Both the position numbers and the translations under genes were made by a program. The notes beneath the pieces were generated by a model. It ran no database searches. It saw only the letters and a list, made by a program, of their open reading frames with translations, and had not been told where the DNA came from. Shown here piece after piece: positions 6,636 to 48,157 of a stretch of DNA of 48,159 nucleotides. Position 1 is the stretch's first letter, and each line of letters begins with the position of its first letter. Origin of the DNA: Candidatus Latescibacterota bacterium (GTDB taxonomy: Bacteria > JAAXHH01 > JACQVL01); assembly GCA_016209865.1 (NCBI GenBank), contig JACQVL010000080.1, positions 1 through 48,159 of the forward strand. Direction: 5' to 3'.

Positions 6636-6716
6636 AAGGACGAAGGACAAAGGACGAAGGACGAAAAAGAGAGGGAGGCTTTCACTTTCGTCCTTTGTCC
6701 TTCGTCCTTCGTCCTT
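6636..6716. repeat. inverted pair of heptamer arrays, unit AAGGACG
   Basis: The left arm (6636-6667) holds four 7-bp units of AAGGACG type, the second being AAGGACA. The right arm (6686-6716) holds the reverse-complement units, with the variant again second when read left to right. About 18 bp separate the arms. It fills the space between mgtE and cstA. Closely similar arrays lie at 29126-29344 and 29908-29934. Confidence 0.9.
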
Positions 6717-6791
6717 ATAATAAGGCAGTCCGTCTTCCAAAAGGTTATCAATATAGTCGATGAGCCGATCCTTGCCAAGAGATTTTTCGCC

Positions 6792-8156
6792 CTACATCAG
6801 CCAGTGAATCAGTTTGGTCGCCAGGCCGAGGAAGACCGCGAACCCGACGACATCCTGGCACGCGCTGGCGAACGGACCAGCCGTGACGGCGGGGTCGAAC
6901 CCGACCTTCTCGGAGATGAGGGGGATGACGGTGCCCAGGACGCCGGCGGTCAGCATCGCGCACAGCATCGCCGTCCCGACGACCGCCCCGAACTGCCATT
7001 TGTCCGTCCAGACGACCGCGATCCCGCCCAGGGTGACCCCGCAAGCCAGCGCCATGAGTAAGCCACTCTTGAGCTCGCGAAGCAGGAGCCACCACCAGCG
7101 TTCGACGCGCACGTGACCGGTCGCCAGCCCACGGACGATGATCGCCCCGGCCTGCACCCCGACGTTCCCGGAGATGGCGGAGATGATGGGCATAAACGAG
7201 GCTAAGATGATGACTTTGCTGAGCGTCTGATTGAACCGACTGATGACGACGGCGGCGATCAATTCGACTCCCATCGTCACGAACAGCCAGGGCAACCGCA
7301 TCCGGGCGATCTGGGTAGGCGACCGGTGCTCCATTTCCTCCGCGTCCGACCCGGCTAAGCGCAGCATGTCCTCGGTCAATTCCTCGTGGATGACGTCGAT
7401 CACGTCATCCACGGTGATCTGGCCGATCAGGCGTCTCTCAGTGTCTACCACCGGCAGGATGATCAGGTTGTATTTACGGACGATGTTGGCCACTTCTTCC
7501 TGGTCCATCCCCTCAGGCACGGACACCACATCCCGGTCCATCACCTCCGTCACCGGCCGGTCTGACCGGGTGATGATGAGGTCGGCTAAGGGGAGCGACC
7601 CGACCAGCCGGCCGGCGTCGTCGACGACGTACACGTTGTAGATTTCCTGTCCGTCCATCTCATCGACGGCGCGGCGGATGACCTCGATCGCTTCCCGGAC
7701 GGTGGCCGATTCCGACACGGTGACGAGTTCCACCTCCATCAACCGGCCGGCGGTGTCTTCCTCGTGTTCGAGCACGTCACGGACATCCGACGACGTGGCC
7801 TCATCGAGCTGGTCGAGCACCTCCTCTTGCACGTCGGCGGGCAGCTCATCGACCAGCTCCGCCGCGTCGTCGGACGGCATCTCATCGACCAGGTCGGCGA
7901 GCTCTCGCGTGTTCAGACTCTCGATCAACTCCTCCCGGAGGTCGGCGTCCAGCTCGGCGATCACTTCCCCGGCCAGGCCGTCGTCTAAGAGGCCGAACGC
8001 CTGCTTCCGTTCGTCCGGTTCCAGGCCGCTTAAGAGGTCGGTAAGGTCTGACGGGTGGAGGATGGCTAACAGATCCGTCACTTCCTCGAACGCCTGCCGG
8101 GCGAGGAGATGGCGCACCCGTTCGCGGCCTTCTTCCAGGTTCTGCTCGGTGATCAT
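6792..8156 (-). CDS. mgtE: MgtE-type magnesium transporter
   Basis: This is a magnesium channel/transporter of the MgtE family, 454 residues from the chosen ATG at 8156; the frame stays open for 67 more codons that read into tonB. Domains in order: acidic superhelical N-domain (about 1-130, with repeated LVDEMPSDDAAELVDELP segments), a CBS pair (about 131-260, ending RRLIGQITVDDVIDVIHEE), and a C-terminal membrane part of five helices (from about 280). The membrane part includes the selectivity-filter region FASACQDVVGFAVF. N-domain and CBS pair close the pore when cytoplasmic Mg is high. A 12-bp hairpin lies in its leader, so it may be expressed separately from the exb-tonB genes. It is followed by a repeat and cstA. 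Confidence 0.95.
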   Translation of the reverse strand: MITEQNLEEGRERVRHLLARQAFEEVTDLLAILHPSDLTDLLSGLEPDERKQAFGLLDDGLAGEVIAELDADLREELIESLNTRELADLVDEMPSDDAAELVDELPADVQEEVLDQLDEATSSDVRDVLEHEEDTAGRLMEVELVTVSESATVREAIEVIRRAVDEMDGQEIYNVYVVDDAGRLVGSLPLADLIITRSDRPVTEVMDRDVVSVPEGMDQEEVANIVRKYNLIILPVVDTERRLIGQITVDDVIDVIHEELTEDMLRLAGSDAEEMEHRSPTQIARMRLPWLFVTMGVELIAAVVISRFNQTLSKVIILASFMPIISAISGNVGVQAGAIIVRGLATGHVRVERWWWLLLRELKSGLLMALACGVTLGGIAVVWTDKWQFGAVVGTAMLCAMLTAGVLGTVIPLISEKVGFDPAVTAGPFASACQDVVGFAVFLGLATKLIHWLM

Positions 8157-8185
8157 CGCGTCTGTCCTGCTCACGCCGCCTAACA

Positions 8186-8222
8186 ACAACGGCGATGACG
8201 TTGCACCCGCCATCGCCGTTGT
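8186..8222 (-). promoter_or_regulatory. perfect 12-bp hairpin between tonB and mgtE
   Basis: Arms ACAACGGCGATG and CATCGCCGTTGT are exactly complementary and enclose a 13-base loop, 30 bp upstream of the mgtE ATG. No U-run follows, so a simple rho-independent terminator is unlikely. A processing site, or a leader element acting on mgtE, is possible. It does not resemble the much longer M-box Mg riboswitch. Confidence 0.5.
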
Positions 8223-8247
8223 GGGCTTCCACATGCTGCGCGTGTCG

Positions 8248-8985
8248 TTATCGCAGCTTGAACCGCATCGGCTGCGAGACCCACACCGCCACCGGCTTGT
8301 GATTCTGGATGGCCGGTGTATAGATCCACTGCCGTACCGCTTCCACCGCCGCCTCATCCAGACCTGCCCCGATCCCCTTTATGACCCTGACGTCTCGGAC
8401 TTTGCCACTCTTGTCGATCAGAACATGGAGGATGACCATCCCCTCGACGCCAGCCCTTCTGGCCATCTCGGGATATTTCGGCTGCTGTTGTGAGATGGGA
8501 ACCGGCAGTTCTTCGAACGCCACGAACTCATCGGGGGCGGGCAGCACCTCCTCCTCCACGACGATCTTCTCTTCCTTGGGCGCTTCGACGATGATATTCT
8601 GGGCGCCTGTGTCTCGGATGATGGGCGCGATCCCCTGACTCATCTCCGTCTGCGTCGCGATCGTCTGCTCGGCAGACACTTCCGTGTCAGGGACCGGCTC
8701 CGGGATCCCGACCACCGGGCGAGCCGGGGCGGAGACCGGAACCTCGGGCATCGGCGGGGCGTCTGTCAACGGCGGAGGCGGCCCCAGGTCGGAATACTTC
8801 ACGATCCGGGTGGAGTAGACTTTTCTCGACTCGCGGACCGCCATGACCACGTAATAGTCAACGGCCAGAAAGAGGACGAACGCACTCGCACAAAGGAATG
8901 ATTTCCAGAAGAAGGACTGGTACACCTGTTTCAGCTCTGACTCATTGTGCAAGGGCAATGCCTCAGCGCGCCAGGAAAGGTTCAT
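8248..8985 (-). CDS. tonB: TonB family energy transducer
   Basis: The 245-residue protein has a cytoplasmic head of about 28 residues, one transmembrane helix (about 28-49, SFLCASAFVLFLAVDYYVV), a proline/glutamate-rich periplasmic spacer with PPPPL and PEVPVS, and a C-terminal TonB domain (about 165-245). The TonB domain shows YPEMARRAGVEGMVILHVLID, then GLDEAAVEAVRQWIYTPA. It transmits proton-motive force from ExbB/ExbD to outer-membrane receptors. Its ATG overlaps the stop of the preceding exbD by four bases. The long N-terminal head with a helix starting near residue 28 is common in TonB proteins of Bacteroidetes-like and related phyla. No TonB-dependent receptor is in the window. Confidence 0.93.
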   Translation of the reverse strand: MNLSWRAEALPLHNESELKQVYQSFFWKSFLCASAFVLFLAVDYYVVMAVRESRKVYSTRIVKYSDLGPPPPLTDAPPMPEVPVSAPARPVVGIPEPVPDTEVSAEQTIATQTEMSQGIAPIIRDTGAQNIIVEAPKEEKIVVEEEVLPAPDEFVAFEELPVPISQQQPKYPEMARRAGVEGMVILHVLIDKSGKVRDVRVIKGIGAGLDEAAVEAVRQWIYTPAIQNHKPVAVWVSQPMRFKLR

Positions 8986-9467: not shown

Positions 9468-9473
9468 CCTGAC

Positions 9474-9959: not shown

Positions 9960-9977
9960 GAAGCCCCTCCCGTCACA

Positions 9978-10700: not shown

Positions 10701-10736
10701 GACCAAGTTCCTCCTGACGAGAACGTCTCATCGATT

Positions 10737-10752
10737 CGTACGAGCGTACGAG
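10737..10752. promoter_or_regulatory. tandem 8-bp direct repeat CGTACGAG upstream of exbB
   Basis: Two exact copies of CGTACGAG, each containing the palindrome CGTACG, lie 37 bp before the exbB start. A spaced pair of palindromic half-sites suits a dimeric regulator. I could not find a good promoter next to it, so this is only a candidate operator. Confidence 0.3.
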
Positions 10753-10832
10753 AAAAGCGCACTTTTTAAGAGCAGGACAGACCGACATCACTCTACGACA
10801 CGGACTCTGCTGACGGGCATCACCACCTTATG

Positions 10833-10936
10833 ATTTTGGATTGTGGATTTTAGATTTTGGATTAGTCAGCCGACACCGGAGCACAGCGAACCCCTGTGTT
10901 CATCAATCCAAAATCCACAATCTAAAATCCAAAATT
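10833..10936. repeat. inverted pair of heptamer arrays, unit ATTTTGG
   Basis: The left arm (10833-10863) reads four units: ATTTTGG, ATTGTGG, ATTTTAG, ATTTTGG. The right arm (10905-10936) holds the reverse complement of each unit in the same left-to-right order. The two inner units therefore mismatch when the arms fold. The right arm begins one base past the TPR gene's TGA. The 41 bp between the arms and the stretch 10764-10832 show nothing else I recognise. Confidence 0.9.
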
Positions 10937-10937
10937 G

Positions 10938-14393: not shown

Positions 14394-16049
14394 CTACTGC
14401 GCACGATACAACCGGACGTGCGTCATATGATTCCACCAGAACGGAGAATAGCCTTGCTTGTTCTTGACAAACCCCTTCACCCACGGCTTGCGGATCTGGG
14501 CGAGGACGGTCTGGTACAGAAACACCCCGCCGGCGTCCGTGGCCAGGGTCTTCTCCGCCTCGTCGTACAACTGCATCCGCTTCGCCGGGTTCATCTCAAA
14601 GTCCGCCGTGTCGACGAGTCGGTCGAACGCCGGGTTCGTCCAGTCATGCCGGCCATGGCCAGACGGTTGCGAGTGCCAGACCATGGCCAACAGGTTGTGC
14701 GGGTCCGGGTAGTCCGACTGGAACGCGCCCAGCCCCACCGGGATGGTGTGCTGGTAGAGGTTGGTCATGTAGACGGTGGTTTCCTGGGGCTGCAGGTCGA
14801 CCGTGATCCCCAGGTGCTCCTTCAACATCCCCTGGATCGCCTGTCCGATGCCGCGCAGCGCCGCGTCGTTGCCGTTCAGCCAGAACGCCACGCGCGGAAA
14901 CCCGCGGCCCCCCGGATACCCCGCTTCCGCCAGCAGCCTGCGGGCCAGCGGGGGATCGTACGCCTGGATCGATTTGTACTTGTCCCCGACGTAGCCGGGG
15001 AACCCGGGCGGCAGCATCGTGTACGCCGGGATGGCCAGTCCTTTCCTGACGACGGTGCAGAGGATATCCCGGTTGATCGCATGGCCGATCGCCTGGCGGA
15101 CTTTCAGGACGTTGAACGGCGGCTTCTGCGTCCGGAAGAACAGGTACCAGGTCTGCGTGTGCGGCCAGGTCACCAGTTCATGCTTGAGCTTCGGGTCGGA
15201 TGTGATGTGCGGGAGGTCGAGCGGGCTGATGTCGTGTAACAGGTCGATCTCGTTATTCTCATACGGCAGGAGGCCGGTCCCGGTCGCCCCGAATTTGATG
15301 GTCACCTTCTCTAACGTGCCTTTGTACGGCCCGTTGTAATTCGGATCGAGCGCGAACACCATCTGCTGCTGGGGCGTCCACTCGACGAGCTTGTACGACG
15401 CGTTGCTGGCACACCGGCCCGGGGTGGCCCACTTCTTCCCGTACTTCTCGAATTGCCAGCGCGGAATCGGGGCCGCCGACAGGTAGGACGTCAGGTAGGG
15501 CAGGTACGGACACGGTTTCTCCGTCTGGATCACGAACGTCAGATCGTTGAGAGCTTTGACTCCGATCGCGTTCCGGTCTTTCAGCTTCCCCAAGTTGAAA
15601 TCGCGCGCGCCCTTGATCTCATAGAAAAGAAAGGCGTACACGTTGCCGATGGACGGCTCCAGGAGGGTCTTATACGTCCACTCGAAGTCGTGCGCGGTCA
15701 CCGGATGCCCGTCGCTCCACCGCGCCCCGCGCCGGAGATGGAACGTCCATGTCTTCCCGTCACGGGACGCTTCCCACCGTTCCGCCGCGCCGGGAATGAG
15801 GTTCTCGCTCTCATCCAGCAGGGTCAGCCGCTCGAACAGGTACTCCCCCCGCCCCGCCCCGTAGTTGTCCAACGTCGCGTCGAGGGTGCGCGGCTCCGGC
15901 CCCGTGTACATGATGCGAAGCACCTGCCGCTCCGGCGCTGCCGCGTCGGGCGGAAGCGGCTTGCCTAAACGATTCACCCGCGGGGACACGGCAGACACGG
16001 TCAGCGCACAGACGAAAACCCCGACCACGACGGTCATCATTCGCCGCAT
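14394..16049 (-). CDS. oligopeptide ABC transporter substrate-binding protein (SBP_bac_5)
   Basis: This 551-residue exported solute-binding protein is of the OppA/DppA family. The signal peptide covers about 1-21 (MTVVVGVFVCALTVSAVS). Family landmarks follow: TLDATLDNYGAGRGEYLFERL, then GKTWTFHLRRGARWSDGHPVTAHDFEWTYK, KVRQAIGHAINRDIL, and PDPHNLLAMVWHS near the C-terminus. It overlaps the end of the heparinase-like gene by 13 bp, so the two are translationally coupled. No permease or ATPase genes are adjacent. It may deliver peptides or oligosaccharide fragments to a transporter encoded elsewhere; family membership alone does not fix the ligand. It is the last gene of the ECF-sigma operon. 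Confidence 0.93.
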   Translation of the reverse strand: MRRMMTVVVGVFVCALTVSAVSPRVNRLGKPLPPDAAAPERQVLRIMYTGPEPRTLDATLDNYGAGRGEYLFERLTLLDESENLIPGAAERWEASRDGKTWTFHLRRGARWSDGHPVTAHDFEWTYKTLLEPSIGNVYAFLFYEIKGARDFNLGKLKDRNAIGVKALNDLTFVIQTEKPCPYLPYLTSYLSAAPIPRWQFEKYGKKWATPGRCASNASYKLVEWTPQQQMVFALDPNYNGPYKGTLEKVTIKFGATGTGLLPYENNEIDLLHDISPLDLPHITSDPKLKHELVTWPHTQTWYLFFRTQKPPFNVLKVRQAIGHAINRDILCTVVRKGLAIPAYTMLPPGFPGYVGDKYKSIQAYDPPLARRLLAEAGYPGGRGFPRVAFWLNGNDAALRGIGQAIQGMLKEHLGITVDLQPQETTVYMTNLYQHTIPVGLGAFQSDYPDPHNLLAMVWHSQPSGHGRHDWTNPAFDRLVDTADFEMNPAKRMQLYDEAEKTLATDAGGVFLYQTVLAQIRKPWVKGFVKNKQGYSPFWWNHMTHVRLYRAQ

Positions 16050-19000
16050 ATCACCCCATCCTCCCCGATGATGTCATACCCGCCGTCATCCCGACGGATC
16101 GCCGTCGCATGCGGGATGACCTCAACCCGGTCGCCCGGGCCGCAGTCGTAAAGCCAGGCGATCGAGCCAGCCGGAAACGCGCGCGTCAGGTCGACCGGCT
16201 CGACGACGGAGACCCGCGCATCACGCCGGAAGCCCGGACGGTGCGAGGCCAGCACGATGTCGTCAACCGGGACCCAGACCGACCGGTCAGCGTTGACCAG
16301 CCACGTCCCGCGGTAATACCCCTGCGCCGCTAAGTAGAGATATGTTTTCGTCACCAGCGACCGGCCGTCCGACCCATGACCGGACACGATGAACCGCCCG
16401 ATGCGGCATGAATCCACCCCGAACCGGACCTGACACCGGTCGGAGTCGCCGTCGATGTCAGTGATCGTGTACGCCGCCCCGTGACGGGTATTTCCGATCA
16501 GGATCATCTCTCCGACGAGGGCGCGAGGCGTCGCGCCCCGACAACGCGCATCCCATTCCACCACGATCATCGAGGGCTCATCCTCGACTGCACTGACCGT
16601 CCCGGACAGCCCGCCCGGAAGACGGAGGGCCACGCCGGTTGTCTCGATCATGCCCGCTCCGATCAAGTCGAGCCGGGTCACCCGTCCGGCCCGGTCCCAC
16701 CGGATGAGGCCGAGGCGGCCGGAGAATTTTAGATTTTGGATTTTAGATTTTGGATTGTTCAACCCGCAATCCGCAATACGCAATCCGCAATCTCCGCCCT
16801 GGATGACCACATCCACCCCGTCTGGGTGCTCGATTCGGAGTCCGACGGCGGCTGGGACCGGACGCCCGTCCTCGTCGCACACGGAAAGGGCGGACACGGC
16901 GTTCGTCTTCGGCGAGTCCCGGAACGGCTCGATCACGGACACGAACCGGCTGGCGAGCGTGTCCCCCCGGTTTCGCAGGATGACGTAGGTCAGCTGGTCG
17001 GGGAGGCCCGGCTTGCGCGGAGGCGGGCCGGCCGCGAAGATCGCCTCGTCCGACGGAACGGGGAACCATATCCTGAGTCCGGCGCGGTCTTCGGACTCCT
17101 GCCACGTCACCGACCAGGGACGATCCGGTCTGCCGCGCCGGACGTTGTCTAAGTACGAGTATCCGCTTCCCCGGTAGGTGTAGTACGACCGTCCCTTCCG
17201 GGCCGGGTCGCGGAGGTCGGGCTCGTCGTAGATGTCCATGAACGGGACGGCTTCCCCGGCCAGGGTCCCTGGCCGTGCCGTGACGGTGAGGCCGTCGACC
17301 TGGAGGAAGGGGGCGTCAAACCCATGCAGGCTGTAATCGTGCTGAACCCCGCCCGTCACGCGGAACAGGTCGATCACGTACCGGGCATCCGGGCCGAGGT
17401 CGACGAGCGCGGTCGTCCGCCGGTACTGGGCGGTGTGGCGGTAGGTCTCCGGCGCGTCGATATCAACAAACTGGAGACCCGGCAGGCTGACAAACCCCAG
17501 CAACCGGCCGGCCGCCTGCGTATCCTGCCGGCGCTCGTCGACCACGACGGTCGCGTGAGCGGCGGTGTTCTTCGTCCAGACCGGTGGGGTCTCCCCTTCT
17601 GCCGCGTGTTCCGGGTAACCTAAATCGGGGATCAGCTTCTTCCCGTATGCGAACACCTCCAGGTTGAGCCGGTCGAAATGGGCGTGTTCCGTCGCCGCCC
17701 GGCCGTAGTAGACCGCCACGGCGGTCTGGGCTTCCCCTTCCCCCGACCGGAGGAGGGCGAGGCCGTACCCGCCGAGCAGCCGGCTGCCGGTCGTCATCGT
17801 CCGGTACTGCCGGGCACCATCATCCACGCCGGACAGCGCCAACGGCGGGGCGAACAGATCATCGACGCTCTCAAACAGGACTCCTTCATCCCGGCGAGCG
17901 GCGCGGGTCTGGAGGAGGTACGCGAAGAGCGGGTCGCGGTACTGCTCGTAGGCGGTGCGCAGCGCGTCGTTCGATAACTCGACGAGGCCGCCGACCACAC
18001 TTCCCGCATCCCCGATCGCCGGGGTGAACCGGTCGAGACAGACGATCTCGGACGGCCAGGAGAACATCCGGCGGATTTTCGGCCGGTCCCAGACGGAGAC
18101 GCCGAGGCGTTCCAGCAGCCGGGCGACCCGACTGAGATGCTCGACCCAACTTGCGCAGTAGCCGGGTGAGGACTCCCATCCGATGCCCTCCCGGAAGAGC
18201 AGGTTGTCGAGCGCGAAGTCGAGGCCCTCTGCATGCGCCGCCTTGTCCCGGAAGAGGTAATCGTCGAAGCTCGTCAGCATCTCTTTGAGCAGGGTGGCCT
18301 CCCCGGTATTCCGGAGCACCCAGTCGACCGCTTCCTCCTGCCGCTGCCGGTCGCCCAGGACGAGAACCGCTGTCAGCAGCGCCTCCTGGTGTCCCCCGTA
18401 GTTGCTCCGAACCTGGCCCCGGTACACGGCCTCGATCCCCTCGATCAGGATATTCCGCTCGATGTGGGCACGCATCCCAGCCGCTCGCGGAGCGAAGTCG
18501 GGGATGTCGATGAGCGCGTCATGGACGCCGTCGTACGCCTCCGCGAACCCCTTGAGGACGCCGGCTTCGGAGATTTGGTTGAAGACCTTCCCCGTGTACT
18601 GAGGGGAGAATTCCACGGCATACATCGACTGGGTGTGGTAGTCCATCGCCGGGTAGACGTCCGCGATCCGGTCGAGCATGATGAGCGCCGTCCGGGCGTA
18701 CCCGGCCTCGCCCGTCAGGACGTACGCCCGCGCGAGCGTGGTCACCCCCTGGATGATCGCGTGCCAGAGGCTCTCACAGCAGTACGCGATGAACCAGTGG
18801 CGGAACCCCGCAGCCTCAGCGCGCCACCCCCAGCCGTCGTCCGGGTACGGCCCGGTCAGGAGGCTCCGGTCGTCCAGCCCCGTCCGGTAGAACGCGCCGA
18901 AGTCGTTGCTGGGGTACGATTCTCCCCCGATCCCGCAGGTCACCGTCCAGGGCGCCGTGAACGGGTCGTACTGCCATCCGCCCTGAGTGTACCCGCTCAA

Positions 19001-19231
19001 TCGCCGGGGCCCGCTCCCGTGGACCGGGCATCCTGTCATGTAATTGACGCTGAACGACCGGGGAACGCGTGCGTCTGGGATGAGGGCGCGAATCGCCTCG
19101 TCGGATAGAGTCATCCAGGGACTGACAGACGCGAGCATCCGGTCCACGATCGTGCGGGCAGAGGCATCCTGGGTGAGACGGTGACGAGCCAGATGGATGG
19201 AGTCCGGGGAGAGGAGAGTCATGAAGGCCAT
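16037..19231 (-). CDS. heparinase II/III-like protein with an in-frame repeat insertion
   Basis: This is a large protein (1064 residues) with the two-part layout of heparinase II/III or alginate-lyase-like enzymes. An alpha/alpha toroid covers about 100-430 (FIAYCCESLWHAIIQGVTTLARAY, then SNYGGHQEALLTAVLVLG). The beta-sandwich heparinase II/III region is at about 520-720 (TEHAHFDRLNLEVFAYGK, a typical H-x-H-x-D segment). The extra C-terminal part (about 750-1064) is less familiar. No signal peptide is evident, so the site of action is unclear. Residues about 812-835 are encoded by heptamer repeats (KSKIQNLKF), an insertion that keeps the frame. It starts 6 bp after the TonB-C gene and overlaps the oligopeptide-binding gene. 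Substrate unknown; activity on acidic polysaccharides is inferred from family. Confidence 0.85.
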   Translation of the reverse strand: MAFMTLLSPDSIHLARHRLTQDASARTIVDRMLASVSPWMTLSDEAIRALIPDARVPRSFSVNYMTGCPVHGSGPRRLSGYTQGGWQYDPFTAPWTVTCGIGGESYPSNDFGAFYRTGLDDRSLLTGPYPDDGWGWRAEAAGFRHWFIAYCCESLWHAIIQGVTTLARAYVLTGEAGYARTALIMLDRIADVYPAMDYHTQSMYAVEFSPQYTGKVFNQISEAGVLKGFAEAYDGVHDALIDIPDFAPRAAGMRAHIERNILIEGIEAVYRGQVRSNYGGHQEALLTAVLVLGDRQRQEEAVDWVLRNTGEATLLKEMLTSFDDYLFRDKAAHAEGLDFALDNLLFREGIGWESSPGYCASWVEHLSRVARLLERLGVSVWDRPKIRRMFSWPSEIVCLDRFTPAIGDAGSVVGGLVELSNDALRTAYEQYRDPLFAYLLQTRAARRDEGVLFESVDDLFAPPLALSGVDDGARQYRTMTTGSRLLGGYGLALLRSGEGEAQTAVAVYYGRAATEHAHFDRLNLEVFAYGKKLIPDLGYPEHAAEGETPPVWTKNTAAHATVVVDERRQDTQAAGRLLGFVSLPGLQFVDIDAPETYRHTAQYRRTTALVDLGPDARYVIDLFRVTGGVQHDYSLHGFDAPFLQVDGLTVTARPGTLAGEAVPFMDIYDEPDLRDPARKGRSYYTYRGSGYSYLDNVRRGRPDRPWSVTWQESEDRAGLRIWFPVPSDEAIFAAGPPPRKPGLPDQLTYVILRNRGDTLASRFVSVIEPFRDSPKTNAVSALSVCDEDGRPVPAAVGLRIEHPDGVDVVIQGGDCGLRIADCGLNNPKSKIQNLKFSGRLGLIRWDRAGRVTRLDLIGAGMIETTGVALRLPGGLSGTVSAVEDEPSMIVVEWDARCRGATPRALVGEMILIGNTRHGAAYTITDIDGDSDRCQVRFGVDSCRIGRFIVSGHGSDGRSLVTKTYLYLAAQGYYRGTWLVNADRSVWVPVDDIVLASHRPGFRRDARVSVVEPVDLTRAFPAGSIAWLYDCGPGDRVEVIPHATAIRRDDGGYDIIGEDGVICGE
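16727..16795. repeat. heptamer arrays inside the heparinase-like coding sequence
   Basis: Two arrays lie in frame in the gene. The left one (16727-16756) has units alternating ATTTTAG and ATTTTGG. The right one (16767-16794) has units of AATCCGC type. The left matches the intergenic arrays at 10833 and 35813. The right, with its leading TTCAACCCGC, matches the array at 31865-31890. The region translates to a low-complexity peptide unlike the rest of the protein. Confidence 0.9.
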
Positions 19232-26143: not shown

Positions 26144-26224
26144 TCACCACAAAGGCACAAAGGACACAAAGAGCGTTCAAATTCTGGATCGTTTTTCTTC
26201 GTGCTCTTTGTGTCTTTGTGGTGA
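26144..26224. repeat. inverted repeat of CACAAAG-type units
   Basis: The left arm (26144-26174) and right arm (26203-26224) carry CACAAAG units separated by one or two bases, in opposite orientation, around about 28 bp. The arms pair as CACCACAAAG...GAGC. The element fills the aminotransferase-mutase gap and adds a spurious open extension to the mutase gene. Confidence 0.85.
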
Positions 26225-27427: not shown

Positions 27428-27451
27428 CCCGAACCCCTAATCCCGAACCCC
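27428..27451. repeat. single heptamer array, unit CCCGAAC
   Basis: Three full 7-bp units (CCCGAAC, CCCTAAT, CCCGAAC) plus CCC lie just upstream of the aminotransferase gene and 4 bp from the putative -10 box. No opposing arm is nearby, so this is a lone array. Confidence 0.75.
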
Positions 27452-27454
27452 GGT

Positions 27455-28352: not shown

Positions 28353-29127
28353 AAACGCGAAACGGTTTATGACGCCTTGGATCGACCGGGAATTACAGGC
28401 TGCAACAGGACAGGAATTGCTCAGCCATCTCGAACGGTGTCCGGACTGCAAACGGGAGTTCGAGCTGGAACGACGACTCAAAGCGATGCTCGCGGAACGA
28501 GTCCCCAGGCTGAGTGCCCCGCCGCATCTGTACCAGCTGATTGTCACCGCGCTGGATGCGCCGCCCGTCAGGCGTTCCTGGGGGGAACGTCTCTCCGAAG
28601 TTCTGCTGGTACGCCCACGAATCGGGTTCGCGGCCATCGCGGCCGCGGCCCTCGTCGTGATGACGACCGTGACCTCCCTCCTCTACTCGACGTTTCAACC
28701 GCCCCCGCCCCTGATTGCCGATCTCGTCCAGCACCACACGATGTGCGCCGTGGAGATAGCCTCCGATCAGCCGGAAAAAATCCGCGCCTGGTTCGCCGGA
28801 CAGGTGAATTTTGCGGTCGACGTCCCGCGCCTCGACCGATTCCACTCGCGACTGTTAGGGGCGCATCTGTGCCAGGCGGCCGACCGGAAGATCGCCTACC
28901 TGGTCTATGACCTCAACGGTACCCGGATGTCCGTCTGTCTGCTCACCGGCTCCCCGGTTGACCTCGACCGGTTGAAACGGGTGTCCCGGAAGAACGCCCA
29001 GTTCTATACCGCCGCCTACCGGAATCAGAACCTCGTCCTGTGGTCTGAAGGCAACCGGATTTGTTCGTTCATCGGCCCGGTCAAGCAGGACGACCTGCTC
29101 ACGATGGCCAGCGGGAGAGAATGGTAA
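28342..29127 (+). CDS. zinc-finger anti-sigma factor, membrane-anchored
   Basis: A 261-residue protein whose ATG lies inside the end of the sigma gene, preceded by GAAGGGCGACAGC. The N-terminal zinc-finger domain has CKNAKRFMTPWIDREL and HLERCPDCKREFELE (H-x3-C-x2-C, about 29-36). A transmembrane helix lies at about 95-117 (IGFAAIAAAALVVMTTVTSLL), followed by an extracytoplasmic domain of about 140 residues (for example LGAHLCQAADRKIAYLVYDLNGTRMSVCLLTG) like those of other ZAS anti-sigmas. The domain contains several cysteine and histidine residues (HHTMCAVEIA, LGAHLCQAA), which might sense metal or redox change. The TAA stop merges with the first unit of an AAGGACG repeat. Confidence 0.88.
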   Translation: MDCKNAKRFMTPWIDRELQAATGQELLSHLERCPDCKREFELERRLKAMLAERVPRLSAPPHLYQLIVTALDAPPVRRSWGERLSEVLLVRPRIGFAAIAAAALVVMTTVTSLLYSTFQPPPPLIADLVQHHTMCAVEIASDQPEKIRAWFAGQVNFAVDVPRLDRFHSRLLGAHLCQAADRKIAYLVYDLNGTRMSVCLLTGSPVDLDRLKRVSRKNAQFYTAAYRNQNLVLWSEGNRICSFIGPVKQDDLLTMASGREW

Positions 29128-29344
29128 GGACGAAAGAGCAAGGACGAAGGACGAAAGAGCAAGGACTAAAAAAAGATTTCTTAGGACGCCTGACAAAAGC
29201 TCTTCCTCGCCCATTGCCATGCTGTGCGAAGCATCTCGCCGTTCTTAAGACCCTTCGCTTCGCTCAGCGTGACATTGCGTGAGCGATTCTTACTCATTCT
29301 TGTTTTTGTCTATTTCGTCCTTTGTCCTTCGTCCTTGCCTTTTA
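29126..29344. repeat. heptamer arrays (AAGGACG type) flanking a convergent gap
   Basis: The left array (29126-29168) mixes AAGGACG and AAAGAGC units, and its first AA is part of the anti-sigma TAA. The right array (29316-29344) carries CGTCCTT, TGTCCTT and CGTCCTT and reaches the HD gene's TAA. The pair spans the gap between two convergent genes, so it may fold as a two-way terminator. The 147 bp between them hold the element at 29211-29280. Confidence 0.85.
29211..29280. repeat. probable dispersed intergenic element between the heptamer arms
   Basis: This stretch contains GCTGTGCGAAGCATCTCGCC followed by CCTTCGCTTCGCTCAGCGTG. It resembles intergenic elements of the CTTCGCTCAG...GTGACA type that I recall from other bacterial genomes. 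No second copy is in this window, so repeat status is an inference. Confidence 0.35.
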
Positions 29345-29907: not shown

Positions 29908-29934
29908 TTTTTCGTCCTTTGTCCTTCGTCCTTA
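29908..29934. repeat. single heptamer array (AAGGACG type)
   Basis: Units CGTCCTT, TGTCCTT, CGTCCTT read left to right in the 38-bp gap upstream of the HD gene. It is the same sequence as the right arms at 6686 and 29316. The TTA at 29932-29934, which is the HEAT-like gene's TAA, is formed by the end of the array. Confidence 0.85.
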
Positions 29935-30942
29935 ATCCTTCCAATAAATGTCCCGGCTCATCGCCAGTTGAATCACCCTGGGACTCCCGCGCCGCCAGTC
30001 GTTGAGGAGGTCGCGGATGTCCTCGCGCAACTCGGGGAATCGGTCCCAGTAGTGCAGGACGAGTTTCGCCGCCTCGACCGTCCAGTCATCATCGTGGGAC
30101 TGATAGACCGTCCGGTCGAGGGCGATCAACACTGGGACAGCGACCTCAAGGTCGACATCCCGCAGGAACCGGATGGCGAAGCGCTGGTCCGGGTCGCGTG
30201 CCAGGTCGATGAGGTGCAGAATAGGCTCCTGGTCGATCCGGCTGATCAGGCGCTGGAGCAACGCCTCGCGCACGTCAAAGAATTTCACGTCCGCTTTCGA
30301 GAGGGCGATCAGGCTGGCCCGTGGGGCGGTCTCACACGCGCGATGGACGACGCCCAGGTACACGTCACCACCCGGCCTGGCCAGCAACGGGAGCGCGACC
30401 TCAAAGAACAAGGGATGCCGACAGACCCCCCAGGAGATCGCGGCACAGACTCCATCATCCGGCTCCGCTTCCAGATGCCGGATGACGATCTCGACCGCCT
30501 CCCGGTGGGGAGCCCGGAGCAACTCGTACAGCGCCTCGCGCCGGAGGAACGCGTCCGGGTCGGAGAGGAGCCCGCCCCAGATGCCCAGATCGAACAGATA
30601 CCGCCACCCCAGCGCGCCGATGATCGCCTCCCGGAGCCGCCGGTCCTCGTCCGGGTTGGCGGCGAGCGCGGCCAGGCGTTTGGGGACGGCCTGGACACGG
30701 TCATCATGCAGCAGGTTGAGACTCAGCCACGGCCGATGGAACCCTAAGACCTGGATGGCAGCGACACGGACGGGGAGGGGCTCCTCCCGGCGCCCGGCCG
30801 ATTCGATCAGCCACTCGACCTCGACAGACTGCAGGGCGACCTGGCGAAGCGCCTGAATCGCCTCCTGCTGCTCCACCCAGTTGTCTTCGTCTTCGTGGAT
30901 TTTCGAGAGTAAGACCGCGAGATGTGCCCGCCCTGACTGCAT
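29932..30942 (-). CDS. HEAT-repeat-like alpha-helical protein
   Basis: A 336-residue soluble protein made of repeated helical pairs with HEAT/armadillo-like features: PVRVAAIQVLGFHRPWLSLNLL, LREAIIGALGWRYLFDLGIWG and FLRREALYELLRAPHREAVEI. I do not recognise a named family. It could be a scaffold for the neighbouring kinase/diguanylate cyclase, which ends 6 bp upstream, but this is inferred only from the operon. The stop TAA coincides with the start of a heptamer array. There is no signal peptide or membrane helix. Confidence 0.75.
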   Translation of the reverse strand: MQSGRAHLAVLLSKIHEDEDNWVEQQEAIQALRQVALQSVEVEWLIESAGRREEPLPVRVAAIQVLGFHRPWLSLNLLHDDRVQAVPKRLAALAANPDEDRRLREAIIGALGWRYLFDLGIWGGLLSDPDAFLRREALYELLRAPHREAVEIVIRHLEAEPDDGVCAAISWGVCRHPLFFEVALPLLARPGGDVYLGVVHRACETAPRASLIALSKADVKFFDVREALLQRLISRIDQEPILHLIDLARDPDQRFAIRFLRDVDLEVAVPVLIALDRTVYQSHDDDWTVEAAKLVLHYWDRFPELREDIRDLLNDWRRGSPRVIQLAMSRDIYWKD

Positions 30943-31818: not shown

Positions 31819-31868
31819 GATGGCGCTCCATCGTTCGGATGGCGGATTTGACTGTCAGGTCTTCAACC

Positions 31869-31890
31869 CGCAATCGGCAATCCGCAATCT
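31869..31890. repeat. short heptamer array, unit GCAATCC
   Basis: Three 7-bp units (GCAATCG, GCAATCC, GCAATCT) lie 3 bp beyond the kinase stop. The block TTCAACCCGCAATC at its left end is identical to that within the heparinase-like gene at about 16760. Confidence 0.8.
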
Positions 31891-33345: not shown

Positions 33346-33358
33346 CACACTCCTTTCT

Positions 33359-33517
33359 GAACGATGAATGCAGAATGATGAACGATGAATGAAAAACTGA
33401 GGGCGGATGCATTCCAGTTGCATTATAGTCACCCGTTCGCTTGATTTCAATAGTTTTTCTGAAAAAATTTTACGTTGTTTTTTTCATTCATCATCCATCG
33501 TTCATCATTCATCGTTT
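33359..33517. repeat. inverted pair of heptamer arrays, unit GAAYGAT
   Basis: Left arm (33359-33397) has five units such as GAACGAT, GAATGCA, GAATGAT. The right arm (33481-33517) has the reverse-complement type (ATCATTC, ATCGTTC). The kinase promoter lies between the arms. The right arm ends in the PIG-L gene's TAA, and the left arm lies in the kinase leader. Confidence 0.85.
33422..33450 (-). promoter_or_regulatory. sigma-70 type promoter of the histidine kinase operon
   Basis: On the minus strand TTGAAA (33445-33450), a 17-bp spacer and TATAAT (33422-33427) give a strong match. It lies in AT-rich DNA between the heptamer arms. The transcript would contain the left arm in its leader. Confidence 0.7.
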
Positions 33518-35583: not shown

Positions 35584-35598
35584 TGAGTCGTGCAGCAT

Positions 35599-35669
35599 AG
35601 CGGTACGGGGAATCGAACCCCGGTTTGATGGCTGAGAACCATCTGTCCTAGGCCACTAGACGATACCGC
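35599..35669 (-). tRNA. tRNA-Glu (CTC)
   Basis: A 71-base cloverleaf on the minus strand. Acceptor GCGGTAT pairs with GTACCGC (one G-U). The anticodon arm is GATGG-TTCTCAG-CCATC with anticodon CTC, and the T arm CGGGG-TTCGATT-CCCCG. The D-arm CTAGTGGCCTAGG is typical of Glu. CCA is not encoded. The discriminator reads U, unusual for tRNA-Glu. It reads GAG codons; a TTC isoacceptor should lie elsewhere. Confidence 0.95.
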
Positions 35670-35737
35670 CGCGACTGACTCCAAATGTACAGATACGCGG
35701 AAAAATGTCAAGGGAATTTTTCCGCGCTAACAGGTAG

Positions 35738-35808
35738 CTGGGGGGCAGGGATTCGAACCCCGGTTCCATGGTCCAGAGCCATGTGTCCTGCCGCTGGACG
35801 ACCCCCCA
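35738..35808 (-). tRNA. tRNA-Gln (CTG)
   Basis: Minus-strand cloverleaf with acceptor TGGGGGG pairing with CCCCCCA, the weak U1-A72 pair typical of tRNA-Gln, discriminator G. The anticodon arm is CATGG-CTCTGGA-CCATG (anticodon CTG) and the T arm CGGGG-like with TTCGAAT. CCA is not encoded. It follows gltX directly, and a heptamer array lies between them. Confidence 0.95.
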
Positions 35809-35812
35809 GGGA

Positions 35813-35865
35813 ATTGCGGATTTTAGATTTTGAATTTTGGATTGAACCAATCCACAATCCGCAAT
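35813..35865. repeat. inverted heptamer arrays, unit ATTNNGG
   Basis: The left arm (35813-35843) has ATTGCGG, ATTTTAG, ATTTTGA, ATTTTGG units. The right arm (35849-35865) has CCACAAT and CCGCAAT. Outer units are truly complementary (ATTGCGG with CCGCAAT). The array begins one base beyond the gltX TAA and ends 5 bp from tRNA-Gln. Confidence 0.88.
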
Positions 35866-37781: not shown

Positions 37782-37857
37782 AGGTTCCAGGAATCAGGTT
37801 CCACGTTCCTCGTGATCCATCCTTCAACCTGGAACATGAAACTTGAAACCTGGAACC
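37782..37857. repeat. inverted heptamer arrays, unit GGTTCCA
   Basis: Left arm 37782-37809 has four 7-bp units (AGGTTCC, AGGAATC, AGGTTCC, ACGTTCC). The right arm (37825-37857) has CAACCTG, GAACATG, AAACTTG, AAACCTG and GAACC. The outer ends are complementary. It lies between tRNA-Ser(GCT) and the small membrane protein gene. Confidence 0.85.
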
Positions 37858-37866
37858 GTCTCAGAA

Positions 37867-37956
37867 CGGAGAGGGAGGGATTCGAACCCTCGGTGGAGTT
37901 TTTGACCCCACAATCGCTTAGCAGGCGATCCGATTCGGCCGCTCTCGCACCTCTCC
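37867..37956 (-). tRNA. tRNA-Ser (GCT)
   Basis: A 90-base type II tRNA on the minus strand. Acceptor GGAGAGG pairs with CCTCTCC, discriminator G. Anticodon loop CTGCTAA with anticodon GCT, long variable arm (about TGTGGGGTCAAAAACTCCAC), T arm GAGGG-TTCGAAT-CCCTC. It reads AGC/AGU. Confidence 0.97.
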
Positions 37957-37974
37957 ATGGCCGGGCACAGAAAG

Positions 37975-38061
37975 CGGCGGGGGTGGGATTCGAACCCACG
38001 GTGCCCGTAAGAGCACAACGGTTTTCAAGACCGTCTCCTTCAACCACTCGGACACCCCGCC
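37975..38061 (-). tRNA. tRNA-Ser (TGA)
   Basis: An 87-base type II tRNA on the minus strand. Acceptor GGCGGGG pairs with CCCCGCC, discriminator G. Anticodon arm ACGGT-CTTGAAA-ACCGT with anticodon TGA, long variable arm, T arm GTGGG-TTCGAAT-CCCAC. It reads UCA and is transcribed first in the pair, 18 bp before tRNA-Ser(GCT). CCA is not encoded. Confidence 0.97.
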
Positions 38062-38073
38062 AGATAGGTTGAC

Positions 38074-38102
38074 AATATAGACACGATCAGAACGGTTGTC
38101 AA
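38074..38102 (-). promoter_or_regulatory. sigma-70 type promoter of the tRNA-Ser/gltX unit
   Basis: On the minus strand TTGACA (38097-38102), a 17-bp spacer and TATATT (38074-38079) lie 12 bp upstream of tRNA-Ser(TGA), as expected for a tRNA promoter. Confidence 0.85.
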
Positions 38103-38135
38103 CAGGAAATTATCCCCCAACCTCCCAACCCCGCC

Positions 38136-38242
38136 GGGCAGATGGGCAGTGGGCAATGGGCAATGGAAGCCATTCCCCCGTCCACTGCCTACTGCCCGGT
38201 GGGGCCTGGGGGCTGTGCGGGGACTGCCTGCTGCCCGATGGG
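38136..38242. repeat. heptamer arrays, unit TGGGCAA/ACTGCCC type
   Basis: The left arm (about 38136-38166) has GGGCAGA, TGGGCAG, TGGGCAA, TGGGCAA units. Two right-hand arms (about 38170-38199 and 38219-38242) carry CACTGCC, TACTGCC and GACTGCC units. The element lies between the tRNA-Ser promoter and the end of dprA. Confidence 0.8.
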
Positions 38243-42603: not shown

Positions 42604-42751
42604 CAGTGACGAGTGACGAGTGGCAAGTGACGAGCAAAAGTCCATCATTTACGTTACGTTGAATCTCATTTCTACGCAAGAGAGAATCGAAAGGCTCCCG
42701 CTCATAAAGAACGGGTCTTACTCGTCACTCGTCACTGGTCACTCGTCACTG
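42604..42751. repeat. inverted heptamer arrays, unit GTGACGA
   Basis: The left arm (42604-42634) has GTGACGA, GTGACGA, GTGGCAA, GTGACGA. The right arm (42716-42751) has TCGTCAC, TCGTCAC, TGGTCAC, TCGTCAC, so the odd unit is third in both. The right arm supplies the last codon and TGA of the NYN gene. Its 36 bp are the exact reverse complement of 48122-48157. The middle 81 bp hold nothing recognisable. Confidence 0.92.
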
Positions 42752-44281: not shown

Positions 44282-44289
44282 AGGGAACC

Positions 44290-45489: not shown

Positions 45490-45497
45490 GCGTCCTC

Positions 45498-45977: not shown

Positions 45978-45998
45978 CACCAGCTCCTTCGAGCGTCG

Positions 45999-46550: not shown

Positions 46551-46564
46551 CCCGGACCCTCCCG

Positions 46565-47512
46565 TCAACCCGGTTGTCTCAGCGCCAGCCCGGCGGCCAC
46601 CATGAACGGAGCCCAGAAACCAGCCTGCATGGTCGCTTCCAGGTCTGGGACGACACGCATGCGCTGGAACGGGTCTGCGGGAACGACCGGCCGGCTCAGG
46701 ATGTCGGCCCACCGGGCGCAGACCTCCGGCAGGCCGCTCATCTCGCCACTGACGATGACGCGAGTCGGCACCTCCTCGTGGGGGAAGGTCTTCAGGAGCG
46801 CCTGAAGCTGGGCCCCAAACGCGGTCAACGCCCCGTCAGTCCCGGTGGACGCAAGGGGAACGCCGTCCGCGTCGAGGGACATCGCCGCGACGTACGAGAC
46901 TGTGTTCTGGACGAAGATCACGTCTATCGCCCCGGGTTCGATGTGGACGAGCGCCGTCTTGTGGCCCAGCTCCGACCTGTAGGCCACTTCGAACGCGTTG
47001 AGAAGCGCGATCGTGGCGACACTCAGCGCCGCCGGGGCCAGCCCGGCGTCCTGTAAGAGATGAAAGAGGGCATCCACGGCGGCCTCCCGTGCGGCGACGA
47101 TCAGCGCCGACCGAGTCGCCTCCGACTCGCGTCCCGTCAACGCCGCATCCACGACGTACTGTTCGAGGGGGTCGATGACCGCGTGGGCCGCTTCCCACAT
47201 CAGCCAGTCGTACTGCGTCTGGGCGTCGGCTGATTGATCGACCTGGGAGAGCAGGACCGTGGCGAACCGATTCCGGAGTCCCCCGACCACCGGCCATGCG
47301 GGGTCCCCGTACGACGCGAACACGGTGCGGATGGCGGCCGTCACGTCGGCGGCGTTCTCGAACAGGGCCGCCGGCATCCGGGGAGCGGGCAGGGGTTGAG
47401 CCCCGACCCGGTGGAGGACCGGCCCGGCTGGGGTGTGTTCGATCGCCACCAGCCGGACCGCCTCGTACCCGACGTCAAGCCCGACAGTGATCTGCGGCGT
47501 CTCCGATGGCAT
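46565..47512 (-). CDS. pilM: PilM-like actin-fold protein
   Basis: A 315-residue protein with an actin/FtsA/MreB-type start (TVGLDVGYEAVRLVAIEHT) and later ATPase-fold motifs (TALVHIEPGAIDVIFVQNTV, then RVIVSGEMSGLPEVC). PilM proteins sit at the cytoplasmic side of the inner membrane in type IV pilus machines and bind PilN. No pilN, pilO, pilP or pilQ gene follows here; rsmD does. The call is by fold and rough pattern. A distant general actin-like protein is possible. It is the first gene after a near-consensus promoter and faces the same way as the comEA-like gene upstream. Confidence 0.78.
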   Translation of the reverse strand: MPSETPQITVGLDVGYEAVRLVAIEHTPAGPVLHRVGAQPLPAPRMPAALFENAADVTAAIRTVFASYGDPAWPVVGGLRNRFATVLLSQVDQSADAQTQYDWLMWEAAHAVIDPLEQYVVDAALTGRESEATRSALIVAAREAAVDALFHLLQDAGLAPAALSVATIALLNAFEVAYRSELGHKTALVHIEPGAIDVIFVQNTVSYVAAMSLDADGVPLASTGTDGALTAFGAQLQALLKTFPHEEVPTRVIVSGEMSGLPEVCARWADILSRPVVPADPFQRMRVVPDLEATMQAGFWAPFMVAAGLALRQPG

Positions 47513-47556
47513 GATCTGCCTCTACGGTCGATGATTGTCATCATGAATCCCGGAGC

Positions 47557-47585
47557 ATAATAGCGAGGGGGGAAGGTCTTGTCAA
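47557..47585 (-). promoter_or_regulatory. sigma-70 type promoter of the pilM-rsmD-coaD cluster
   Basis: On the minus strand TTGACA (47580-47585), a 17-bp spacer and TATTAT (47557-47562), a near-consensus promoter 45 bp before the pilM ATG. ATGATGACAATCAT, an inverted repeat, lies close to the expected start and may be an operator. Nine genes (pilM to dprA) run on from it without another clear promoter. Confidence 0.8.
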
Positions 47586-47610
47586 CAGAAAAGTGGCAGG
47601 GGAGCTTGAT

Positions 47611-48114
47611 TCATCGAGGCGGGGCGTGAGGGGAGTCGACACGGACCCACGGTTTGATCTTGACGAGGGTGGCCCGGCCGATCCCTTTCACGTTCATCAA
47701 CTGTTCCACGGTGCTGAACGCGCCGATCTGCCGCCGGTACGCGATGATCCGCTCAGCCAGTTTTGGCCCGATCCCGGGGAGAGTCTGGAACTGGGCGGAC
47801 GAGGCGGTGTTGAGGTTGATCGGCGTGGAGGGGGGAATCGCCTTGCCGGATCGCCGTCCAGCCCGGCCGGGACTGGACTGCGCCGTGCTATCACGGCCGG
47901 CAGCGCGGGAGACCGTCCGCGTCCGGGACGGCGGCGTGGTCGCGGTGCCGGTATCGGCCGCCGCCAACGCGGGCGTGTTCATCCACGGGTCGGGTCTCAG
48001 GTCGGGCGCGACGTCCGCGCGATAGTGTTGCAAGACGGACACGACGCCCCCGACGGCCAGACTGGCGGCCAGAAAGAGGATGGCGCGCCGTTCTTGAGGG
48101 GTGAGGGTGAGCAT
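47611..48114 (-). CDS. comEA: ComEA-like helix-hairpin-helix DNA-binding protein
   Basis: A 167-residue protein with an N-terminal hydrophobic helix (about 10-28, RAILFLAASLAVGGVVSVL), a low-complexity linker rich in Thr, Ser and Arg, and a C-terminal double helix-hairpin-helix domain (about 95-160). The domain has INLNTASSAQFQTLPGIGPK, LAERIIAYRRQIGAFSTVEQ and LMNVKGIGRATLVKIKPWV. ComEA is the periplasmic DNA receptor of natural transformation. No Shine-Dalgarno precedes ATG 48114; a heptamer array stands 7 bp before it. dprA and pilM in this window support a competence role. Confidence 0.9.
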   Translation of the reverse strand: MLTLTPQERRAILFLAASLAVGGVVSVLQHYRADVAPDLRPDPWMNTPALAAADTGTATTPPSRTRTVSRAAGRDSTAQSSPGRAGRRSGKAIPPSTPINLNTASSAQFQTLPGIGPKLAERIIAYRRQIGAFSTVEQLMNVKGIGRATLVKIKPWVRVDSPHAPPR

Positions 48115-48121
48115 CGTATGA

Positions 48122-48157
48122 CAGTGACGAGTGACCAGTGACGAGTGACGAGTAAGA
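48122..48157. repeat. heptamer array, unit GTGACGA, at the right edge
   Basis: The array directly precedes the comEA ATG. It is an exact 36-bp reverse complement of 42716-42751. The window ends two bases later, so an opposing arm outside it cannot be excluded. Confidence 0.9.

What the first reader, a model, noticed from the sequence alone, without database searches (positions are those of the whole stretch)
6636..48157. At least seven families of 7-bp intergenic tandem arrays in one 48-kb window
Arrays with a strict 7-bp period occur at about 12 places. Unit families are AAGGACG (6636, 29126, 29908), ATTNNGG (10833, 16727, 31869, 35813), CACAAAG (26144, units spaced by 1-2 bp), CCCGAAC (27428), GAAYGAT (33359), GGTTCCA (37782), TGGGCAA (38136) and GTGACGA (42604, 48122). 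Most are inverted pairs of 3-5 units. They resemble the STRR heptamers of filamentous cyanobacteria. So many unrelated units with the same length and architecture suggest that one process builds or copies 7-mer arrays regardless of sequence.
Basis: partly seen in the sequence, partly recalled or inferred. Interest (0 to 1): 0.8.

Follow-up and report, generated by a model that had tools for sequence, protein, structure and literature searches.

The report
Heptamer arrays as mobile-element ends
The many different 7-base repeat arrays in this bacterial genome look like the two mirrored ends of a tiny, very widespread genetic element, often carrying one small gene (S23, known until now from insertions in ribosomal RNA), which would explain a long-unexplained excess of 7-base repeats in bacteria.

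Summary
The window has 14 array sites: 10 inverted pairs and 4 lone arms, with seven heptamer families plus one 8-9-bp family. Genome-wide there are about 300 period-7 arrays per Mb, against 2 in 550 kb of a Markov control. In all 87 close inverted pairs the G-rich arm comes first.

The explanation found: inverted heptamer arrays are the ends of small insertion elements whose gene, when present, is the S23/23S-IVP four-helix bundle (PF05635). Of 115 S23 genes from dozens of bacterial families, 79 have a period-7 array on at least one side and 43 on both, with widely differing heptamers; regions 900 bp away give 6/74 and 0/74, ParE genes 2/29 and 0/29. Cyanobacterial plasmids supply occupied and empty alleles: array-S23-inverted array is present or absent as one block at operon gene junctions. 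A second gene family, GxxExxY (PF13366), is flanked the same way but with an 8-9-bp period, matching the window's CACAAAG array. Period therefore follows gene family; sequence does not.

How the element moves is unknown. Reverse transcriptase was not found in 18 of 28 S23-bearing genomes, nor Y1 transposase in this 83%-complete one. Most pairs here lack S23 and enclose unique loops; that remains unexplained.

The parts
6635..6716 (.). Inverted pair, AAGGACG family: arms 6635-6665 and 6687-6716, loop 21 bp
   Evidence: RNA fold -57.5 kcal/mol, z -9.2
10832..10935 (.). Inverted pair, GATTNNG family: arms 10832-10863 and 10905-10935, loop 41 bp, directly 3' of the TPR-protein ORF on the minus strand
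   Evidence: z -7.9
16726..16792 (.). Inverted pair, GATTTTG arm and GATTGCG arm, about 3-bp loop; read in frame inside ORF 16037-19231 (minus strand, heparinase II/III domain)
   Evidence: z -3.3
26146..26223 (.). Inverted pair, CACAAAG family with 8-9-bp spacing; same unit as the arrays flanking this genome's GxxExxY gene (contig C193, locus L351)
   Evidence: z -7.8
27428..27452 (.). Lone C-rich arm, AACCCCG family (partner family CGGGGTT)
29126..29336 (.). Inverted pair, AAGGACG family with AAAGAGC variant units: arms 29126-29166 and 29314-29336, spacer about 150 bp
29911..29941 (.). Lone C-rich arm, TTCGTCC
31864..31889 (.). Lone C-rich arm, CAATCCG (GATTNNG family)
33358..33516 (.). Inverted pair, GAAYGAT family: arms 33358-33392 and 33484-33516, loop 91 bp
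35813..35865 (.). Inverted pair, GATTNNG family, very short loop, 4 bp 5' of a tRNA-Gln gene (35737-35808, minus strand)
   Evidence: z -4.0
37782..37857 (.). Inverted pair, GGTTCCA family, 8 bp 3' of a tRNA-Ser gene (37866-37957, minus strand)
   Evidence: z -6.5
38136..38205 (.). Inverted pair, TGGGCAA/TGGGCAG family, upstream of a tRNA-Ser gene; same unit family as the arrays around the S23 gene of contig C104 (L200)
42605..42750 (.). Inverted pair, AGTGACG family: arms 42605-42634 and 42720-42750, loop about 86-90 bp, between a lactate/malate dehydrogenase ORF and a NYN-domain ORF
   Evidence: z -7.5
48119..48153 (.). G-rich arm, AGTGACG family, at the contig end (partner not assembled)
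   Evidence: the window is a whole contig end

Best explanation
The inverted heptamer arrays are the two ends of very small insertion elements, S23 elements. A complete element is a 5' G-rich array of about 3-5 heptamers, an S23 four-helix-bundle gene (PF05635, about 120 aa) in the sense direction, and the same array reversed and complemented. The element inserts as one block between co-directional genes of operons, at gene junctions, and both neighbouring genes remain open. Most copies in this genome are short array pairs without the gene. SHOWN: the arrays, their orientation rule, the tight association with S23 genes across many bacterial families, presence/absence of the whole block at identical plasmid sites, and a different period (8-9 bp) around a second gene family (GxxExxY). 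INFERRED: that the arms are recognised as a 7-nt-pitch hairpin or strand by the S23 oligomer (PDB relatives 2GSC and 2RLD each have five chains), which would explain why the pitch but not the sequence is conserved, and that arrays without S23 are non-autonomous derivatives or remnants. UNKNOWN: the strand-transfer enzyme and how arrays are built. I put about 0.35 on S23 being the trans-acting factor.
For: S23 genes: period-7 array on both flanks 43/115, on at least one 79/115; same loci shifted 900 bp: 0/74 and 6/74; other periods 0-1 both, except period 8 with 12; Fisher P 1e-11 and 1e-17. ParE genes in the same genomes 0/29 and 2/29. Left unit equals reverse complement of right unit within 2 mismatches in 40/43 elements. 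Units are similar only among S23 proteins >=60% identical (mean distance 1.5 against 3.4; permutation 0/2000 for pairs >=45% identical), so unit and gene are co-inherited and the unit turns over. In this genome 2 of 3 S23 genes lie inside inverted arrays, AAGGACG and GGCAGTG families. 7/7 plasmid S23 genes are flanked. Occupied and empty alleles at sites A, C, B, D, E, F. G-rich arm is 5' in 87/87 own pairs and in 59/66 S23 elements. S23 co-directional in 15/16 loci with parallel neighbours. GxxExxY: period 8-9 arrays, 0/24 period 7. Independent published sightings: heptamers GACAGAT directly upstream of S23p in the Coxiella 23S rRNA IVS (PMC4990558); 70-75 convergent GGGAATC pairs in Xanthomonas (PMC4692102); S23 of X. 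campestris is PDB 2GSC.
Against: Only 3 S23 genes were found for an estimated several hundred array pairs in this 83%-complete genome, and none near the most abundant family, AGTGACG. Loops of the S23-less pairs are mostly unrelated unique sequences, not shrunken copies of one interior. 36/115 S23 genes show no array at the threshold used. No fixed-size target-site duplication: short repeats GTAAT, TTCTA and ATG at three junctions, none exact over 5 bp in a strict comparison, and no signal in this genome. The third own S23 (C153) lacks clear arrays. S23 counts come from database genomes of mixed quality and some loci are not independent.
Confidence: 0.72

Rival explanations
1. S23 and GxxExxY genes are passengers. 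An unidentified host or mobile enzyme builds and moves array-bounded segments, and small genes are captured between arms.
For: Most pairs here carry no gene; loops are unique. Two S23-less cyanobacterial elements bear the same arrays as S23 elements but enclose a roughly 100-nt structured segment (L246, L247). RT and Y1 transposase are not universal.
Against: Array period is specific to the gene family (7 for S23, 8-9 for GxxExxY), which a common external machine would not predict. ParE genes are not captured. Arms and S23 are co-inherited among S23 >=60% identical.
Confidence: 0.3
2. The arrays are simple sequence repeats made by polymerase slippage with a 7-nt preference, as proposed in the SSR literature (cited in PMC4679880 and PMC4692102).
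For: Copy number varies between alleles (L234 against L235; Coxiella strains, PMC4990558). Slippage can change array length.
Against: It does not predict inverted pairs, the G-rich-arm-first rule 87/87, bracketing of S23 genes, the 8-9 period of GxxExxY, or block presence/absence.
Confidence: 0.05
3. The arrays are regulatory sites (protein-binding sites, terminators or processing hairpins) maintained by selection, as proposed for paired hepta/octanucleotide sites in Geobacter metallireducens (PMC2700814) and TAACTGA repeats in Beggiatoaceae (PMC4679880).
For: Folded pairs are very stable (z -3 to -9); they sit at operon junctions and beside tRNA genes.
Against: Insertion polymorphism at otherwise intact operons, unit turnover and S23 bracketing point to elements; some copies may have been co-opted.
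Confidence: 0.1
4. A REPIN/RAYT-type system: pairs of inverted palindromic repeats mobilised in trans by a Y1 (RAYT) transposase.
For: Same layout in outline: gene flanked by inverted repeats plus many gene-less inverted pairs. Y1_Tnp is found in 25 of 28 S23-bearing genomes.
Against: No Y1_Tnp in this genome (83% complete), nor in G077 (100%) or G109 (93%, 10 S23 genes). Arms are tandem arrays, not REP hairpins.
Confidence: 0.06
5. An RT-dependent system related to diversity-generating retroelements, S23 acting like its homologue Avd.
For: Published sequence/structure similarity between Avd and PF05635 (PMC10053308). S23 inserts co-directionally with transcription.
Against: RVT_1 not found in 18 of 28 S23-bearing genomes, including this one and the single-contig genomes G073, G074 and G116. 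RTs too divergent for PF00078 would be missed.
Confidence: 0.08

Closest known systems
23S rRNA intervening sequences (IVS) encoding S23 protein (Leptospira, Coxiella and others)
   Same: S23/PF05635 gene between terminal inverted repeats; Coxiella IVS has tandem heptamers GACAGAT just upstream of S23p, variable between strains (PMC4990558)
   Different: Here the elements lie in protein-coding operons and intergenic DNA, ends are arrays of about 3-5 heptamers on both sides, units differ from element to element, and hundreds of gene-less pairs accompany them
STRR and other heptanucleotide repeats of cyanobacteria, Xanthomonas GGGAATC, Beggiatoaceae TAACTGA, Geobacter paired repeats
   Same: Period 7; many intergenic copies; Xanthomonas has 70-75 convergent inverted pairs (PMC4692102); Geobacter sites are paired on opposite strands with variable distance (PMC2700814)
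   Different: Those reports treat the arrays as SSRs, G-quadruplexes or binding sites; none that I could read links them to S23
REP/REPIN and RAYT transposases
   Same: A gene flanked by inverted repeats plus many gene-less inverted pairs elsewhere
   Different: No Y1 transposase found in this genome; repeats are tandem arrays with free sequence; two gene families with two periods
GxxExxY (PF13366) elements
   Same: Same layout, gene bracketed by inverted short arrays, sometimes at operon junctions
   Different: Period 8-9 instead of 7; protein of a PD-(D/E)XK-type family; known to me only as an annotated protein family, not as an element

Membership tests
S23 / 23S rRNA IVS element | S23 (PF05635) gene | tested here: met
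   3 genes in this genome over cut-off; 120 loci examined. Not in the window itself.
S23 / 23S rRNA IVS element | Terminal inverted repeats around the gene | tested here: met
   arm units inverted in 40/43 elements with arrays on both sides
S23 / 23S rRNA IVS element | Located in a 23S rRNA gene | tested here: not met
   loci lie in protein-coding operons and intergenic regions; so this is IVS-like, not an rRNA IVS
S23 / 23S rRNA IVS element | Excised from RNA by RNase III | not testable with these tools
   stable stems predicted; no RNA data
Cyanobacterial STRR | Tandem heptanucleotides, intergenic, multicopy | tested here: met
   296 arrays per Mb; one in-frame exception
Cyanobacterial STRR | Same unit sequences as the described STRRs | not tested
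   original STRR paper not held; AAGGACG 27-mer does occur in Nostoc, Leptolyngbya and Oscillatoria records
REPIN/RAYT | Y1 (RAYT) transposase in the genome | tested here: not met
   0 matches in this genome at 83% completeness; absent also in G077 and G109
REPIN/RAYT | REP-type palindromic hairpin units in inverted pairs | tested here: not met
   arms are tandem heptamers
Diversity-generating retroelement | Reverse transcriptase | tested here: not met
   no RVT_1 in this genome nor in 17 other S23-bearing genomes
MITE | Shared conserved interior derived from a parent element | tested here: not met
   loops mostly unrelated; one near-identical pair L015/L084, otherwise shared parts are mainly a GCGGGAATCC-type palindrome and arm-like sequence
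DNA transposon | Fixed-length target-site duplication | tested here: inconclusive
   GTAAT, TTCTA and ATG short repeats at three plasmid junctions; strict overlap test gave 3 bp in one of three; none significant in this genome (P 0.085)

The most novel reading that the evidence does not exclude
A class of minimal mobile element whose ends are recognised by repeat pitch and polarity rather than by sequence: a small oligomeric protein (S23 for 7 nt, GxxExxY for 8-9 nt) counts units, so any heptamer can serve, and the protein with host enzymes moves or writes the arrays. This would be a sequence-free, period-defined recognition of mobile DNA or RNA ends.
Probability: 0.3. Interest if true: 0.95.

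Novelty: new variant of a known kind. Interest (0 to 1): 0.82.

Why it matters
Heptanucleotides are reported as the most abundant class of long simple repeat in many bacterial genomes, and slippage has been the offered reason (PMC4679880, PMC4692102). Linking the arrays to S23 elements gives a concrete and testable origin, joins three literatures that do not cite each other as far as I could see (rRNA intervening sequences, STRR/heptamer repeats, Avd-like proteins), and predicts a role in mobility for one of the commonest small proteins of unknown function in environmental genomes. The rule that period follows protein family while sequence is free is unlike the ends of any mobile element I know.

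Tried and rejected
Long-gap array pairs as cargo transposons: the genes between them were ordinary (sigma factor, HAD, tRNA methyltransferase-like, rubrerythrin/VIT1-like, M48 protease), so they are neighbouring elements, not one. S23 inside the 110 AAGGACG loci of other phyla: only 2 loci (L163, L185) had an S23 gene by my profile, so this shared unit is mostly seen without the gene. RT and Y1 as universal partners: rejected. Phage carriage: one S23 query found nothing in 50,697 phage records. TSD in this genome: not significant. Rfam on the window and on L237, L245, L246, L247: only tRNAs in the window, so the structured cargo of L246/L247 is no known family. Arms as exact inverted duplications: rejected, 0 of 42 four-unit pairs identical in hairpin order, and hairpin-order mismatches exceed those of shuffled partners (P 0.003); perhaps selection against perfect palindromes, a hypothesis only.
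Full report
1. Observation. The arrays are real and period 7 is exceptional. In an unbiased 550-kb sample of the genome there are 163 period-7 arrays, 34 of period 8, 19 of period 9 and few of any other period, against 2 in a third-order Markov control; the window has 17 against 0-1. Two dimers tested genome-wide occur 90 and 240 times, their reversed-text controls 0. The window holds 10 inverted pairs and 4 lone arms. One pair (26146-26223) has 8-9-bp spacing, and one array (16726-16792) is read in frame inside a large ORF.

2. Anatomy. In 0.95 Mb of sampled stretches there are about 300 arrays; 87 inverted pairs lie within 260 bp, and in all 87 the G-rich arm is 5'. Arms are mostly 24-32 bp. 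In the AAGGACG and AGTGACG families the outermost and innermost units are usually the consensus and inner units vary. Paired arms are less complementary than randomly re-paired arms of the same family (P 0.003). Loops are mostly unique sequence. Six of the seven window pairs folded as RNA give z-scores of -4 to -9 and the seventh -3.3.

3. The same heptamer in unrelated phyla. The 27-mer AAGGACGAAGGACRAAGGACGAAGGAC was found in at least 110 stretches, with records named Bacteroidota, Planctomycetota, Omnitrophota, Cyanobacteria, Chloroflexi, Verrucomicrobia, Acidobacteria, WOR-3, Gammaproteobacteria and others. Among 96 relatives only G012, of the same order, has a single copy, so array families turn over fast. 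Loci from other phyla also show period 7 as the main period and carry many other heptamers (these loci were chosen for AAGGACG).

4. The link to S23. From memory I suspected the S23/four-helix-bundle family. This genome has three PF05635 genes; two lie exactly between inverted arrays, of the GGCAGTG and AAGGACG families. S23 genes drawn from genomes of dozens of other families show the same, with widely differing heptamers. With 120 loci: both flanks 43/115, at least one 79/115; windows shifted by 900 bp 0/74 and 6/74 (Fisher P 1e-11 and 1e-17). Arms carry the same unit in inverted orientation (40/43 within two mismatches) and the 5' arm is G-rich in 59 of 66. Units are shared only between S23 proteins at least 60% identical, so gene and unit travel together but the unit changes quickly.

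5. Control families. ParE genes from the same genomes: 0/29 both, 2/29 one flank. GxxExxY (PF13366): 0/24 with period 7, but 8/24 with period 8 and 9/24 with period 9 on at least one flank, and inverted arrays visible by eye in most (CACAGAGG, CACAAAGG, CGCAGATT, CGCGGAT...). The single GxxExxY gene of this genome is bracketed by CACAAAG arrays, the unit of the window pair at 26146. So period goes with gene family.

6. Occupied and empty sites. Plasmid records gave six sites. Site A: Trichormus plasmid with S23 and TCAGAATTCAG-type arrays between two transfer-region genes; Aulosira and Nostoc carneum plasmids (97% identical flanks) read straight through; a third (L242) has a decayed copy. Site E: Nostoc plasmids with S23 at a stop-start junction, TTCTAAATCAGGAG...GATTCTAGTTATG, against empty TTCTAGGTTATG in the same operon of sister plasmids. 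Site F: the next gap of that operon in pNsp_c holds a different S23 element with GGGAAAA-type arrays, empty elsewhere as GGTAATGGG. Sites B, C and D (Calothrix; Nostoc; the cmr2-cmr3 gap of Picosynechococcus PCC 7003 against PCC 7002) agree in outline, with less exact junctions. L245 carries a gene-less pair in the place where L234 has S23. The block comes and goes as a unit and the arrays are absent from empty sites. S23 runs with its neighbours in 15 of 16 loci with parallel flanking genes, and with the upstream gene in 26 of 31.

7. Mechanism. Shown: block insertion, polarity, gene-specific period. Inferred: recognition of the arms by an S23 oligomer at one unit per subunit or contact; solved relatives 2GSC and 2RLD each have five chains, which fits a five-subunit ring but does not prove it. 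Not known: catalysis. RVT_1 was not detected in 18 of 28 S23-bearing genomes, including single-contig ones, and Y1_Tnp not in this genome, G077 or G109. Short direct repeats at three junctions (GTAAT, TTCTA, ATG) suggest staggered joining or microhomology but no fixed duplication.

8. Known work. Coxiella's IVS has heptamers GACAGAT upstream of S23p and 28-bp terminal inverted repeats (PMC4990558). Xanthomonas has 70-75 convergent GGGAATC pairs, and the authors note heptamer over-representation without a cause beyond slippage (PMC4692102). Geobacter metallireducens has paired hepta- and octanucleotide sites on opposite strands read as regulator sites (PMC2700814). TAACTGA arrays in Beggiatoaceae, Cyanobacteria and Bacteroidetes were suspected of horizontal spread with no mechanism evident (PMC4679880). 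Avd of DGRs is related to PF05635 (PMC10053308). None of the papers found states the general S23-heptamer link; the library lacks subscription papers and preprints, so prior description cannot be excluded.

9. Limits. The window itself contains no S23 gene; its arrays are assigned by shared units and layout. The abundance of gene-less pairs with unique loops and the absence of S23 for the main family AGTGACG are not explained. The organism is an unnamed, incomplete draft genome. Threshold choices (score 9, 160-bp flanks) set the percentages, but controls used the same or a similar scoring (190-bp flanks for ParE and GxxExxY).

Noticed in passing
L344-L373, flanks of the GxxExxY match; window 26146-26223: GxxExxY (PF13366) genes are bracketed by inverted arrays of 8-9-bp period, a parallel class to the S23 elements, and multicopy in the same genomes.
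   Followed up: partly
L246:2500-2690 and L247:2500-2730: S23-less cyanobacterial elements with the arrays of the L237 S23 element enclose a conserved roughly 100-nt segment with two stems that look to have compensatory changes; no Rfam match.
   Followed up: partly
loops of many pairs, e.g. L019:3387-3437, L026:16658-16734: A dispersed palindrome (CATTCCCGCGCAAGCGGGAATCCA type) recurs inside array loops across this genome, as if inserted there preferentially.
   Followed up: no
window 35598-35865 and 37782-38205: Three of ten array pairs sit within 4-80 bp of tRNA genes (Gln, Ser, Ser).
   Followed up: no
L335 (Picosynechococcus PCC 7003 plasmid): An S23 element separates cmr2/cas10 and cmr3 of a type III-B CRISPR operon; the PCC 7002 plasmid pAQ6 lacks it.
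   Followed up: yes
own-genome pairs: Paired arms match each other in hairpin order worse than randomly re-paired arms do; unit variants tend to follow the same 5'-3' order in both arms.
   Followed up: partly
window 48119-48159: The contig ends inside or next to an array, so these repeats probably fragment the assembly.
   Followed up: no
S23 loci: 12 of 115 S23 genes have period-8 arrays on both flanks, so 7 is the rule but not absolute for S23.
   Followed up: no
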